Assembly: GCF_000280925.3 (NCBI RefSeq)
Contig: NZ_CP012109.1
Coordinates: forward strand, 6,592,501 to 6,656,500
Length of the DNA: 64,000 nucleotides
Source of the DNA: Myxococcus hansupus
Lineage (GTDB): Bacteria > Myxococcota > Myxococcia > Myxococcales > Myxococcaceae
Direction of reading: 5' to 3'
The notes beneath the pieces are model-generated. The model worked only from the letters and a program-made list of their open reading frames with translations. It had not been told where the DNA came from and did not search any database. This document shows, in pieces, positions 14,425-23,215 of this stretch. Within the stretch, counting starts at the first letter, position 1. Each line of letters begins with the position of its first letter. The position numbers and the translations under genes are program-made.

Positions 14425-15990
14425 ATGCAAGCAGAGACAGAACCCTTGAAGCGGGGGCCTGAGCTGGCGCCCCAATGGCCTCGCCGGCCGTCGTCGGTCC
14501 TCGCGGGCTCGCGAGAGGGTCTCGCCGCCGTCACCGCCGCGCTCACGGGCGCGGTGGGCAGTGCATTGGCTGTCGCGCGGTGGCCCTCCGGGCCCATGCG
14601 CGCGGGGACGCCGGCGGACGTGCTCGCCGCGGCCCGGACGGCGCTGGGCATGGAAGGCATTCCCACGGAGGGCATGGGTGCCGAGGCCGCGCTGGCTCGC
14701 ATTGGCAAGGTGTTGGTGGAGTACGGACTCCATCTGTCCCACCCCCACGCGGTGGCGCACCTTCAGCCACCTCCGCTGGCCGTCGCCGTGGCGGCGGATG
14801 CCCTGGCGAGCGCGAGCAACGCCTCGCTGGACACCTATGACTCCGGGCCCTCGGCCATCGCCGTGGAGCGGTGGCTCATTGGGGGCCTGATTGAGTTGGC
14901 GGGGCTGGGCGCCCAGGCGGATGGGGTCCTCACGCCCGGTGGCTCGATGTCCAACCTGATGGGGCTGCTGCTCGCGCGCGACGCGGCCGCCCTGCGCCGG
15001 GGTATCGACGCCCGCCGCCAGGGCGTGAGCGCGCTGCCCGGCCCGGTGGTGCTGTGCTCCGAGCTGGCCCACTTCTCCATCCAGCGGGCCTGCGCGGCCC
15101 TGGGCTTGGGCGAGGACGCCGTGCGGCTGGTGCCCACCGACGCGCGTCGGCGGATGCGTCCGGACGCGCTGGCCGCCATCCTGCGGGAGCTGCCGCCGGA
15201 GCACACGCCGCTGGCCATCGTCGCCACGGCGGGGACGACGGACTTCGGCAGCATCGACCCCCTGCCCCAAATCGCGGCCATCGCGGCCGAGCACGGAGTC
15301 TGGCTGCACGTAGACGCGGCCTACGGCTTCGGCGCGCTGTTCTCCGAGCGGCTCGCGGGCAAGCTCCACGGCCTGTCGCTCGCGGACTCCGTCACCCTGG
15401 ACCTGCACAAGCTGGGCTGGCAGCCCGCCGCCACCAGCGTGTTGCTGGTCTCCAACGCCAGCAACTTCTCCGCCCTGGAGCGAGAGGTCGCCTACCTCAA
15501 CCCGGTGGACGACGCGGACGCCGGCTATGAGGGCCTGCTGGGCCGCAGCCTCCAGACGACCCGCCGCCCGGACGCGGTGAAGGTCGCCGCCACGCTGCTG
15601 GCGCATGGACGCCGGGGCCTGGGCGACATGGTGGACACCTGCCACGACCTCGCCAAGCACGCCGAGCAGCGCATCAACGCCGAGCCCGAGCTGGAGCTGG
15701 TGGCGCCCGCGGAGCTGACCACTGTCGTCTTCCGTTACCGCTGCTCCGAGGAGCCCGAGCGCGAGGATGAAATCAACGGCGCCATGCGACGCCGGCTGAT
15801 GGAGACCGGCACCGCGCTGATTGGCCGCACGTCCGTCCGCACGGAGGGCCCGGGTTCGCCCGAGCGCGTCTGCCTCAAGTTCACCCTGCTCAACCCGACG
15901 ACGACGCCCGAGGACCTGGACGCGCTCGTGGACGCCGTGCTCGCGGCTGGACGCGCCTGCACGCCTCGCCTCCAGAAGGGGGCCGCATGA
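14425..15990 (+). CDS. PLP-dependent diamine-forming decarboxylase of siderophore pathway (RhbB/DesA-like)
   Basis: 521 residues; ATG with a GGAGG eight bases upstream. It is a group II PLP decarboxylase: substrate/cofactor region TPGGSMSNLMGLLLARD, His216 in ELAHFS stacking on the cofactor, Asp297 in HVDAAYG binding the pyridine nitrogen, and Lys329 in DLHKLGW forming the Schiff base. In NIS siderophore pathways this enzyme makes the diamine backbone: 1,3-diaminopropane from L-2,4-diaminobutyrate (RhbB) or cadaverine from lysine (DesA). Which one cannot be told by eye. As no diaminobutyrate aminotransferase gene (rhbA) is present here, lysine is a serious option. It is the first of six genes all joined by 4-base overlaps. 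Confidence 0.92.
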   Translation: MQAETEPLKRGPELAPQWPRRPSSVLAGSREGLAAVTAALTGAVGSALAVARWPSGPMRAGTPADVLAAARTALGMEGIPTEGMGAEAALARIGKVLVEYGLHLSHPHAVAHLQPPPLAVAVAADALASASNASLDTYDSGPSAIAVERWLIGGLIELAGLGAQADGVLTPGGSMSNLMGLLLARDAAALRRGIDARRQGVSALPGPVVLCSELAHFSIQRACAALGLGEDAVRLVPTDARRRMRPDALAAILRELPPEHTPLAIVATAGTTDFGSIDPLPQIAAIAAEHGVWLHVDAAYGFGALFSERLAGKLHGLSLADSVTLDLHKLGWQPAATSVLLVSNASNFSALEREVAYLNPVDDADAGYEGLLGRSLQTTRRPDAVKVAATLLAHGRRGLGDMVDTCHDLAKHAEQRINAEPELELVAPAELTTVVFRYRCSEEPEREDEINGAMRRRLMETGTALIGRTSVRTEGPGSPERVCLKFTLLNPTTTPEDLDALVDAVLAAGRACTPRLQKGAA

Positions 15991-21338: not shown

Positions 21339-23215
21339 ATCCCCGCAGCGAAGCCGTGAACCTCGACCCCTCCGTCACCCGTCTTCCCACCGCGTCGAAC
21401 GCGCCCACCGAGGGCGGTGACCACCCGGTGCCCGTCCTCGACGAGGTGGGCCCCGCAGCCTGGCGCGAGGCCAACCGCCAACTGCTGGCCAAGGCCCTGG
21501 GTGAGTGGTGCTTCGAGGAGATGCTCAAGCTCATCCCCCATGGCGAGGGGAAGTACCGCGTCGACCTGGGCAGCGGCACCTCGTACGTGTTCGCCGCGCG
21601 GCCGGGCGCCTTCGGATGGATGAAGGTGGACCCCGCCTCCATCACCCGCAGCGCCACCGGCATGCTGGGCAACAGCATCGCGGAGCCCGCCTGGGACGCG
21701 CTGCAGTTCCTGACGGACGCCGCGCCCAGCCTGGGCACCGACGCGTCCACCCTGGCCACGTACTTCAACGAGCTGTCCTCCACGCTGGCGGTGGACGCCG
21801 CGCGCATCGCCCACGGCGGTCACACCGCCGCGGAGCTGCGTGAAGTGGGCCACACGGAGCTGGAGTGCCACATGACGGGGCACAACTGGCTGGTGGCGAA
21901 CAAGGGCCGGGTGGGCTTCTCCGCCTCCGACGTGCGCCGCTATGCGCCCGAGGCGCGCCAGCCGGTGCGGCTGCAGTGGGTGGCCGTGCACCGCGGGCTG
22001 GCCGAGTTCCGCGGCACCTCCGAGCTGTCCGAGCGCGAAATCCTCGCCCGCGAGCTGGACGAGGCGACGCGCACCCGGTTCACCCGCGTCCTCACCCACG
22101 CGGGCCTCAAGCCGGACGCCTTCGTGTGGATGCCCGTGCACCCGTGGCAGTGGGAGCACGCGGTGCAGGTGCTGCACGCGGCGGACGTGGCGCAGCGGCG
22201 CATCGTCCCGCTGGGCGAAAGCCCGGACGTGTACCTGCCGGGCCAGTCCATCCGGACCATGGCCAACGTCACCACGCCGGGCCGCTATGACGTCAAGCTG
22301 CCGCTGCGCATCCTCAATACGCTCGTGTGGCGCGGGATTCCGCCGCACTGCACCCTGGGCGCCCCCGTCGTCACCCAGTGGCTCCAGTGCCTGCTGGACA
22401 GCGACCCCTTCCTCACCCAGGAGTGCCGCACGGTGTTCCTGGGCGAGGTGGCGTCGGTGACGGTGCGGCACCCGTACCTCACCAAGGTGCCGGAGGTGCC
22501 CTACCAGCACCTGGAGACGCTGGGCTGCATCTGGCGTGAGCCGGTGGCCGCGCGTCAGGACGCGTCCGAGCGGGTGCGCACGTTCGCCTCGCTGCTGCAC
22601 GTGGACAGCCAGGGCACGGCGTTCGTCGCGGAGCTCATCCGCGCGTCGGGCCTGAGCACGGAGGCGTGGCTGCAGCACCTGTTCGACACGCTGCTCATCC
22701 CCATCATGCACGTGCTCTACCGGTACGGCATCACCTTCAACCCACACGGGCAGAACACGCTGCTGGGCTTCGACGGAAACGACGTCCCGCGCCGCCTGTA
22801 CCTCAAGGACTTCGTCGACGACGTGTGCGTGTCCTTCACCGACGTCCCGGAGCGGGGACCGGAGCCGGACGGGCATGACCACGTGCTGCCGCGCAAGCAC
22901 CCCTCCGTCATCCGCCAGCACGTGGTGGACCAGATTTTCGTGGGCCACTTCCGCTACATGGCGCCCATGCTGGAGGAGCAGCTCGGCCTGAAGGAGCGGG
23001 ACTTCTGGAAGCAGGTCCGGAAGACCATCCTGGCCTTCCACCAGCGCAACCCGGAGCTGCGGGAGCGCTTCTCCGAGTACGACCTGCTGGTGCCCGAGAT
23101 TCCGCGCTACGCGCTCAACCGGGACCGCATCGTGGTGACGCGATACACCGACCGGGCCCTGCGCCACGCGCTGTACCCGAACGGGACGCTGCCCAACCCG
23201 CTCGCGCACGACTGA
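21335..23215 (+). CDS. NIS siderophore synthetase, IucA/IucC family (RhbF/AlcC/DesD-like)
   Basis: 626 residues from GTG 21335, overlapping the exporter stop (GTGA) and preceded by AAGGAG. Motifs: GHNWLVANKGRVGFS (182-196), VHPWQWEH (268-275), QSIRTM (304-309), KLPLRILNTL (321-330), PHGQN (469-473) and LKDFVDDV (489-496). This is the type that joins a second hydroxamate arm to a citryl monoamide (RhbF, IucC) or dimerises N-hydroxysuccinyl diamines (AlcC, DesD). Beside an IucA-like enzyme, the first role is more likely. It is the last gene of the operon and is followed by a strong hairpin. Confidence 0.93.
   Translation: MNPRSEAVNLDPSVTRLPTASNAPTEGGDHPVPVLDEVGPAAWREANRQLLAKALGEWCFEEMLKLIPHGEGKYRVDLGSGTSYVFAARPGAFGWMKVDPASITRSATGMLGNSIAEPAWDALQFLTDAAPSLGTDASTLATYFNELSSTLAVDAARIAHGGHTAAELREVGHTELECHMTGHNWLVANKGRVGFSASDVRRYAPEARQPVRLQWVAVHRGLAEFRGTSELSEREILARELDEATRTRFTRVLTHAGLKPDAFVWMPVHPWQWEHAVQVLHAADVAQRRIVPLGESPDVYLPGQSIRTMANVTTPGRYDVKLPLRILNTLVWRGIPPHCTLGAPVVTQWLQCLLDSDPFLTQECRTVFLGEVASVTVRHPYLTKVPEVPYQHLETLGCIWREPVAARQDASERVRTFASLLHVDSQGTAFVAELIRASGLSTEAWLQHLFDTLLIPIMHVLYRYGITFNPHGQNTLLGFDGNDVPRRLYLKDFVDDVCVSFTDVPERGPEPDGHDHVLPRKHPSVIRQHVVDQIFVGHFRYMAPMLEEQLGLKERDFWKQVRKTILAFHQRNPELRERFSEYDLLVPEIPRYALNRDRIVVTRYTDRALRHALYPNGTLPNPLAHD

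What the first reader, a model, noticed from the sequence alone, without database searches (positions are those of the whole stretch)
14425..23215. NRPS-independent siderophore operon with rhbBCDEF order, an added exporter and no rhbA
Six genes run in the order decarboxylase, NIS synthetase, GNAT, N-monooxygenase, MFS, NIS synthetase. This is the rhizobactin 1021 order rhbB-C-D-E-F with an exporter inserted, but no diaminobutyrate aminotransferase. Two synthetases of IucA- and IucC-like type imply a citrate core with two hydroxamate arms. If the decarboxylase uses lysine, the product would be arthrobactin-like (C20H36N4O9, 476 Da); with diaminobutyrate it would be schizokinen-like (C16H28N4O9, 420 Da). 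Characterised myxobacterial siderophores known to me are catecholates (myxochelins); I know of no characterised citrate-hydroxamate from this group.
Basis: partly seen in the sequence, partly recalled or inferred. Interest (0 to 1): 0.78.

Follow-up and report, generated by a model that had tools for sequence, protein, structure and literature searches.

The report
Borrowed siderophore operon with Xus-like uptake
A soil predator bacterium (Myxococcus hansupus) carries an iron-scavenger gene set closely related to ones in actinobacteria; it is linked to an uptake module resembling one that gut Bacteroides use to steal other bacteria's iron carriers, and it appears to stand in for the myxochelin that this species no longer has genes to make.

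Summary
The six-gene operon is real, at the stated coordinates and in the stated order, with 4-base overlaps at all five junctions. The host is Myxococcus hansupus. The pathway is a citrate-bis-hydroxamate (NIS) siderophore pathway with one IucA-type and one IucC/RhbF-type synthetase. Citrate-hydroxamates are known from myxobacteria (nannochelins). An exporter in that slot occurs in a Picosynechococcus cluster too. The decarboxylase falls in neither the RhbB nor the DesA clade: it belongs to a third clade (18 of 18 loci without a diaminobutyrate aminotransferase next door) with its own pocket residues (AHLQ, DTYDS, AYGFG). The clade favours lysine, hence cadaverine arms, over diaminobutyrate; ornithine is not excluded. 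Four gene trees place the operon next to actinobacterial clusters (DEC 69-73%, NISa 70-75%), implying inter-phylum transfer. Nine of 27 Myxococcus genomes carry the operon. Three of those nine, this one included, lack myxochelin marker genes; none of the other 18 does. Five further species keep the uptake module without the synthesis genes.

The parts
14381..14399 (+). Fur-box-like element upstream of the operon
   Evidence: 14/19 match to GATAATGATAATCATTATC, 0 of 200 single-base shuffles as good; near-identical element at the same place in G107, M. eversor (L005) and M. dinghuensis (L002)
14425..15990 (+). PLP-dependent amino-acid decarboxylase (third clade, neither RhbB nor DesA)
15987..17771 (+). 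NIS synthetase, IucA type (IucA_IucC + FhuF domains)
   Evidence: (best PDB match IucA 5jm7)
17768..18355 (+). GNAT N-acyltransferase (Acetyltransf_8)
   Evidence: start at ATG 17768, overlapping the previous stop
18352..19788 (+). flavin N-monooxygenase (diamine N-hydroxylase)
   Evidence: (PDB matches: 6xbb monooxygenase, DfoA 5o8p, putrescine hydroxylase 7us3)
19785..21338 (+). DHA2/EmrB-type MFS exporter
   Evidence: 48-63% identical MFS next to the actinobacterial clusters
21335..23215 (+). NIS synthetase, IucC/RhbF side of the tree, outside the DesD clade
23270..25786 (-). TonB-dependent receptor (XusA-like role; scores as MxcH family, 970 vs cut-off 925)
25783..26916 (-). PepSY_TM protein, C-terminal part (XusC-like reductase)
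   Evidence: one open frame together with the next part in relatives L202, L205
26910..27464 (-). PepSY_TM protein, N-terminal part; split from the C-terminal part in this assembly
27601..27930 (-). 109-aa membrane protein conserved in the uptake operon (56-92% in relatives)
28003..29238 (-). XusB-like lipoprotein (411 aa, lipobox LAAC, predicted beta-propeller)
29306..29324 (-). weaker Fur-box-like element upstream of the uptake operon
   Evidence: 13/19 match

Best explanation
The locus makes and takes back a citrate-bis-hydroxamate siderophore. Proposed route: the decarboxylase turns a diamino acid, most likely lysine (about 0.6; ornithine about 0.2, diaminobutyrate about 0.12), into a diamine. 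The monooxygenase N-hydroxylates it and the GNAT acylates it to a hydroxamate arm. The IucA-type synthetase attaches one arm to citrate and the IucC/RhbF-type synthetase the second, giving an arthrobactin-type product. With acetyl arms this is C20H36N4O9, [M+H]+ 477.2555. The MFS protein exports it. The ferric complex is caught by an XusB-like lipoprotein, passed through the TonB receptor, and its iron is probably released by the PepSY reductase. Fur probably regulates both operons. The biosynthetic block was probably acquired from actinobacteria and combined with a myxobacterial Xus-like uptake module. In M. hansupus it seems to have replaced myxochelin. Shown here: gene content, order, phylogeny, absence of a diaminobutyrate aminotransferase and of myxochelin markers, and fold similarity to XusB. 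Inferred: substrate, acyl group, product, iron regulation, transport roles, and the replacement.
For: Families and order. Both synthetases fall with RhbC/RhbF-type rows rather than DesD. No diaminobutyrate aminotransferase in the genome. DEC clade of 18 with no RhbA homologue next door, against 23 of 45 rows with one elsewhere in the enclosing clade (Fisher 7e-5, not corrected for relatedness). Pocket-region residues differ from the Dab type (AHLH, DSWDQ, G302) and partly agree with the lysine type (T137, S338). In Plesiocystis and a delta MAG the same DEC and NMO sit with DesD/DfoC-type synthetases. A Streptomyces hybrid cluster with its own DesA/DesB pair carries a NISc sister to this one (L063). 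Transfer: the five myxobacterial rows form one clade beside or among actinobacterial rows for DEC, NMO and both NIS genes. XusB: PDB profile match E=1e-6; Foldseek top six hits all B. fragilis XusB, E=4.7e-13, TM 0.73. Myxochelin markers missing in own genome.
Against: No substrate, product or expression data. The DEC clade is also not of the DesA type, so lysine is an inference. Actinobacterial members may draw Dab from other pathways; those genomes were not searched for it. The XusB model is of moderate confidence (pLDDT 71), XusB identity is about 13%, and no Pfam DUF4374 hit was found for the window protein itself. The PepSY gene is split by a one-base length difference in this assembly, so uptake may be impaired, or the assembly is wrong there.
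Confidence: 0.7

Rival explanations
1. The arms are N-hydroxyputrescine: the decarboxylase uses ornithine and the product is a citrate-bis(N-acyl-N-hydroxyputrescine), C18H32N4O9 with acetyl arms (MH+ 449.22).
For: The decarboxylase pocket matches neither the Dab nor the DesA pattern. The monooxygenase also resembles a putrescine hydroxylase (7us3). Ornithine needs no extra gene.
Against: Positions 137 and 338 agree with the lysine type. Relatives pair this DEC with DesD/DfoC-type synthetases, which by established knowledge mostly use cadaverine. I know of no characterised citrate-putrescine hydroxamate.
Confidence: 0.2
2. Schizokinen/rhizobactin-like product with diaminopropane arms; Dab comes from an unrecognised aminotransferase or from outside.
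For: The gene order equals rhbBCDEF. The best NCBIfam model for the decarboxylase is the RhbB model, though at 355 bits vs a cut-off of 900. Clusters with the aminotransferase lie just outside the DEC clade.
Against: No aminotransferase over the cut-off in a complete genome; the best candidates are other class-III families. None in any of 18 clade loci. H114, S137 and G302 of Dab-type enzymes are replaced.
Confidence: 0.12
3. A nannochelin-like siderophore whose arms are intact N6-hydroxylysine esters.
For: Nannochelins are citrate-hydroxamates from another myxobacterial suborder.
Against: A decarboxylase is the first gene of the operon and is kept at 83-97% identity across relatives; an unprocessed lysine arm would not need it (own knowledge of nannochelin structure). 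No methyltransferase lies in the operon.
Confidence: 0.04
4. The uptake genes serve mainly foreign siderophores (true piracy), and their position beside the biosynthetic operon is incidental.
For: Five Myxococcus genomes hold the uptake module with no NIS genes. XusABC was described as a xenosiderophore system.
Against: The high-scoring XusB group is present in 9 of 9 producers in the genus, and the gene stands next to the decarboxylase in four of them. The two operons converge with a 54-bp gap.
Confidence: 0.12

Closest known systems
Rhizobactin 1021 operon rhbABCDEF (Sinorhizobium meliloti pSymA)
   Same: Order decarboxylase - IucA-type NIS - GNAT - monooxygenase - IucC-type NIS; 42, 36, 32, 39 and 37% identity
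   Different: No rhbA; decarboxylase in another clade with other pocket residues; MFS between monooxygenase and second NIS; Xus-like uptake module
Actinobacterial NISc-DEC-NISa-GNAT-NMO clusters (Haloechinothrix, Streptomyces sp. NBRC 110611, Rhodococcus plasmid pSID and others)
   Same: DEC 68-73%, NISa 72-75% identical with NISc 66-77% in L004, L008 and L128; no aminotransferase; MFS beside the cluster
   Different: Order rearranged; in L008 the neighbours are FecCD/periplasmic-binding-protein import genes rather than a TonB receptor and Xus-like lipoprotein. I found no characterised product for them
Picosynechococcus sp. PCC 7117 NIS cluster (L160), probably synechobactin/schizokinen type
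   Same: Decarboxylase, NIS, GNAT, monooxygenase, MFS, NIS in the same order
   Different: Has the aminotransferase; second NIS joined to a GNAT
Nannochelins (Nannocystis)
   Same: Citrate-hydroxamate class from myxobacteria
   Different: Different suborder; arms keep the lysine carboxyl as esters (own knowledge)
XusABC of Bacteroides
   Same: TonB receptor + beta-propeller lipoprotein + PepSY protein; fold match to the short, hookless, ferrichrome-binding XusB
   Different: Other phylum; linked to the host's own siderophore synthesis; about 13% identity
Fradiamine
   Same: Citrate with alkyl-amine arms from Streptomyces
   Different: Asymmetric; the possible cluster type (L063) has two decarboxylases and an aminotransferase

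Membership tests
Rhizobactin 1021 / schizokinen type pathway | Gene order DEC-NISa-GNAT-NMO-NISc | tested here: met
   (with an MFS gene between NMO and NISc)
Rhizobactin 1021 / schizokinen type pathway | Diaminobutyrate aminotransferase (RhbA) | tested here: not met
Rhizobactin 1021 / schizokinen type pathway | Decarboxylase of the Dab type | tested here: not met
   Other clade and pocket residues; 355 vs 900 bits to the RhbB model
Citrate-hydroxamate NIS siderophore (general) | One IucA-type and one IucC-type synthetase, N-hydroxylase and acyltransferase | tested here: met
Citrate-hydroxamate NIS siderophore (general) | Product is citrate with two hydroxamate arms | not testable with these tools
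   needs LC-MS and NMR
Desferrioxamine (DesABCD) | DesA-clade decarboxylase and DesD synthetase | tested here: not met
Arthrobactin type | Lysine decarboxylation to cadaverine | tested here: inconclusive
   Context and T137/S338 favour it; no enzyme data
XusABC uptake system | TonB receptor + lipoprotein + PepSY protein in one operon | tested here: met
   PepSY frame split in this genome, single in relatives
XusABC uptake system | XusB beta-propeller (DUF4374) fold | tested here: met
   the Pfam model itself scores only the Plesiocystis homologue, below its cut-off
XusABC uptake system | Binding of ferric siderophore | not testable with these tools
   needs a binding assay
Myxochelin receptor MxcH (NF038079) | Serves myxochelin | tested here: inconclusive
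   Score above the cut-off, but the host has no myxochelin marker genes and the gene sits with another pathway

The most novel reading that the evidence does not exclude
An Xus-type surface-lipoprotein uptake system, known so far as a device for stealing siderophores, works here as the partner of the cell's own hydroxamate siderophore. Within one genus this gives producers (9 genomes) and receiver-only species (5 genomes) that keep the uptake module without synthesis, while some producers have given up myxochelin: a natural, genetically defined public-goods system in predatory bacteria. In addition, the decarboxylase clade may have a substrate specificity not seen in RhbB or DesA.
Probability: 0.45. 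Interest if true: 0.72.

Novelty: new variant of a known kind. Interest (0 to 1): 0.57.

Why it matters
If true, it shows an actinobacterial-type siderophore pathway displacing a lineage's standard siderophore (myxochelin) in a predator, and puts Xus-type lipoproteins outside Bacteroidota in the service of a self-made hydroxamate. The split between producer and receiver-only species within one genus makes siderophore sharing and cheating testable with defined genes. The third decarboxylase clade gives signature residues (AHLQ, DTYDS, AYGFG) for sorting many uncharacterised actinobacterial NIS clusters.

Tried and rejected
RhbB or DesA placement of the decarboxylase: rejected by the tree. DesD-type synthetases: rejected. 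The two best class-III aminotransferases in the genome (C1:595150, C1:598073) as Dab-AT: they score best with other class-III families. The MxcH-family receptor at C1:795897 as a sign of a myxochelin cluster: its neighbours include isoleucyl-tRNA synthetase, and MxcE/MxcD orthologues and a true MxcK are missing. Paper searches for a product of the actinobacterial relatives (arthrobactin, fradiamine, FW0622, Rhodococcus pSID) found none assigned to these clusters. NCBIfam models gave no substrate information for the monooxygenase. A clean empty site for the lost myxochelin cluster was not sought.
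Full report
HOST. The window lies in a single-contig genome of 9,490,432 bases. This is the published size of the Myxococcus hansupus chromosome (PMC4765838). That paper's text mentions neither siderophores nor myxochelin.

OBSERVATION. The six ORFs are as reported, with 4-bp overlaps at each junction and strong codon-position bias. 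Domain searches confirm decarboxylase, IucA_IucC, GNAT, N-monooxygenase, MFS, IucA_IucC. In the rest the best decarboxylase match is at most 39% identical. The operon is a real, patchily distributed unit.

AMINOTRANSFERASE. S. meliloti pSymA was read to verify rhbA-B-C-D-E-F. RhbA has no homologue beside the window operon, and TIGR00709 finds nothing over its cut-off in the genome.

DECARBOXYLASE. A tree of 76 sequences separates two sides by a 100* branch. One holds RhbB, Acinetobacter/Pantoea Dab decarboxylases and the DesA/DfoJ lysine enzymes. The other is mainly actinobacterial and contains the window protein. Within the second side the window protein sits in a 100* clade of 18: five myxobacterial, one Plesiocystis, one deltaproteobacterial MAG and eleven actinobacterial. 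None of the 18 has an RhbA homologue next door, whereas 23 of the other 45 rows do (Fisher 7e-5, not corrected for relatedness). Residues around the presumed substrate pocket separate three types. Dab-context enzymes have AHLHC, DSWDQ and G302. DesA/DfoJ have AHLNC, DTWDQSAG and usually C302. The window clade has AHLQ, DT(Y/F)DS and F302, with S338 shared with the lysine type. Assigning these positions to the pocket rests on general knowledge of group II PLP decarboxylases, not on a structure made here. Clade members in Plesiocystis and the MAG sit with DfoC/DesD-type synthetases. The NISc of a Streptomyces cluster that has both a DesA/DesB pair and an aminotransferase-decarboxylase pair (L063) is sister to the window's NISc group. 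I therefore favour lysine to cadaverine, with ornithine second.

SYNTHETASES AND HYDROXYLASE. The first NIS enzyme is IucA-side (best PDB match IucA). The second matches DesD, AlcC, DfoC and IucC in the PDB, but in the tree it lies outside the DesD/DfoC group, with RhbF-type rows. The monooxygenase is in an all-no-aminotransferase clade of 16 (100*). DEC, NMO and both NIS genes each place the five myxobacterial rows as one clade beside or among actinobacterial rows (DEC 69-73%, NISa 70-75%, NISc 75-77% where the order is NISc-DEC-NISa-GNAT-NMO), against 32-42% to rhb. For the two NIS genes the myxobacterial rows are nested among actinobacterial ones, which favours transfer from actinobacteria; direction was not formally tested. 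The exporter has a 48-63% relative beside the actinobacterial clusters, and a Picosynechococcus cluster has an MFS in the same slot, so it is not an unusual insertion.

UPTAKE SIDE. On the minus strand, converging on the operon with a 54-bp gap, are a lipoprotein (28003-29238), a 109-aa membrane protein, a PepSY_TM protein and a TonB receptor. The lipoprotein has no Pfam hit. A profile of eight homologues finds B. fragilis XusB in the PDB at E=1e-6. The AlphaFold2 model (pLDDT 71, pTM 0.74) has B. fragilis XusB as its top six Foldseek hits (E=4.7e-13, TM 0.73 by target). A Plesiocystis homologue upstream of its decarboxylase gives a sub-threshold DUF4374 hit. In Bacteroides, XusA is a TonB transporter, XusB a siderophore-binding lipoprotein and XusC a PepSY protein. 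The paper proposes that hookless XusB proteins prefer hydroxamates, and the two length classes peak at 410 and 465 residues (PMC13142918). The window protein has 411 residues and its best match is the ferrichrome-binding, hookless form. In G095, G098, G108 and G114 the XusB-like gene stands directly upstream of the decarboxylase. The receptor scores above the NCBIfam cut-off for the myxochelin receptor MxcH, so automatic annotation would probably misname it. A paralogous XusB/PepSY/receptor set lies at 793-798 kb. A Fur-box-like element (14/19) lies at 14381-14399 and is conserved in close relatives; a weaker one (13/19) precedes the uptake operon.

MYXOCHELIN. The 2,3-dihydroxybenzoate-AMP ligase of the myxochelin pathway is over its cut-off in 24 of 27 genomes of the genus. 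The three exceptions, G000 (this genome), G107 (its 97% sister) and G108, all carry the NIS operon. An independent marker, the dedicated isochorismate synthase, is missing in the same three and present in three controls. MxcK is also below cut-off here. Fisher p = 0.029, but only about two independent losses are involved, so the association is suggestive. The window operon holds the only NIS genes and the only strong N-hydroxylase in the genome.

RECEIVER-ONLY GENOMES. G101, G102, G110, G112 and G113 have orthologues of the whole uptake operon (56-78%) and no NIS genes. Receptor and XusB trees need at least two changes of producer/receiver state. G102 groups with producers in the receptor tree, pointing to loss of synthesis at least once.

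COMPARISON. The pathway works like arthrobactin/schizokinen biosynthesis. It is not a member of the rhizobactin type by two tested features (RhbA, decarboxylase type). Citrate-hydroxamates are known in myxobacteria as nannochelins (PMC10127202), and NIS clusters of Plesiocystis and Enhygromyxa were noted before (PMC6226438). The finding is a new variant of a known kind. Its less expected parts are the Xus-like partner, the decarboxylase clade, and the producer/receiver pattern.

Noticed in passing
window 25783-27464 (-): The PepSY_TM gene is split into two overlapping frames by a one-base length difference in a run of G compared with relatives (L202, L205), where it is one frame: a real frameshift or an assembly error.
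   Followed up: partly
L171 (G120:C15:62001-82000); also NIS genes of G044 and G045: A different myxobacterial NIS cluster: several IucA/IucC genes, two Orn/DAP-type decarboxylases, ornithine cyclodeaminase and a PALP enzyme (SbnA/SbnB-like), MFS, TonB receptor, PepSY. It looks like a staphyloferrin-B-type carboxylate siderophore.
   Followed up: partly
L176 (G084:C21:48000-64000): Another genome of the same family carries a full aminotransferase-DEC-NISa-GNAT-NMO-NISc cluster, so the rhizobactin/schizokinen type also occurs in myxobacteria.
   Followed up: partly
L063, L075 (Streptomyces); L069 similar: Hybrid clusters with a DesA/DesB-like pair followed by aminotransferase-DEC-NMO-NISa-GNAT-NISc; they could make citrate siderophores with two different diamine arms, as in fradiamine.
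   Followed up: no
   Followed up: partly
G000:C1:793000-798400 (L173): A second XusB-like / PepSY / MxcH-family receptor set in a genome without myxochelin markers; possibly a xenosiderophore uptake system.
   Followed up: partly
27 Myxococcus genomes: XusB-like lipoproteins occur in every genome of the genus, often several per genome: an unnamed family in myxobacteria.
   Followed up: partly
window 532-1710 (+): MbnP-family protein (PF20243), a family linked to copper/methanobactin uptake, about 13 kb from the siderophore locus.
   Followed up: no
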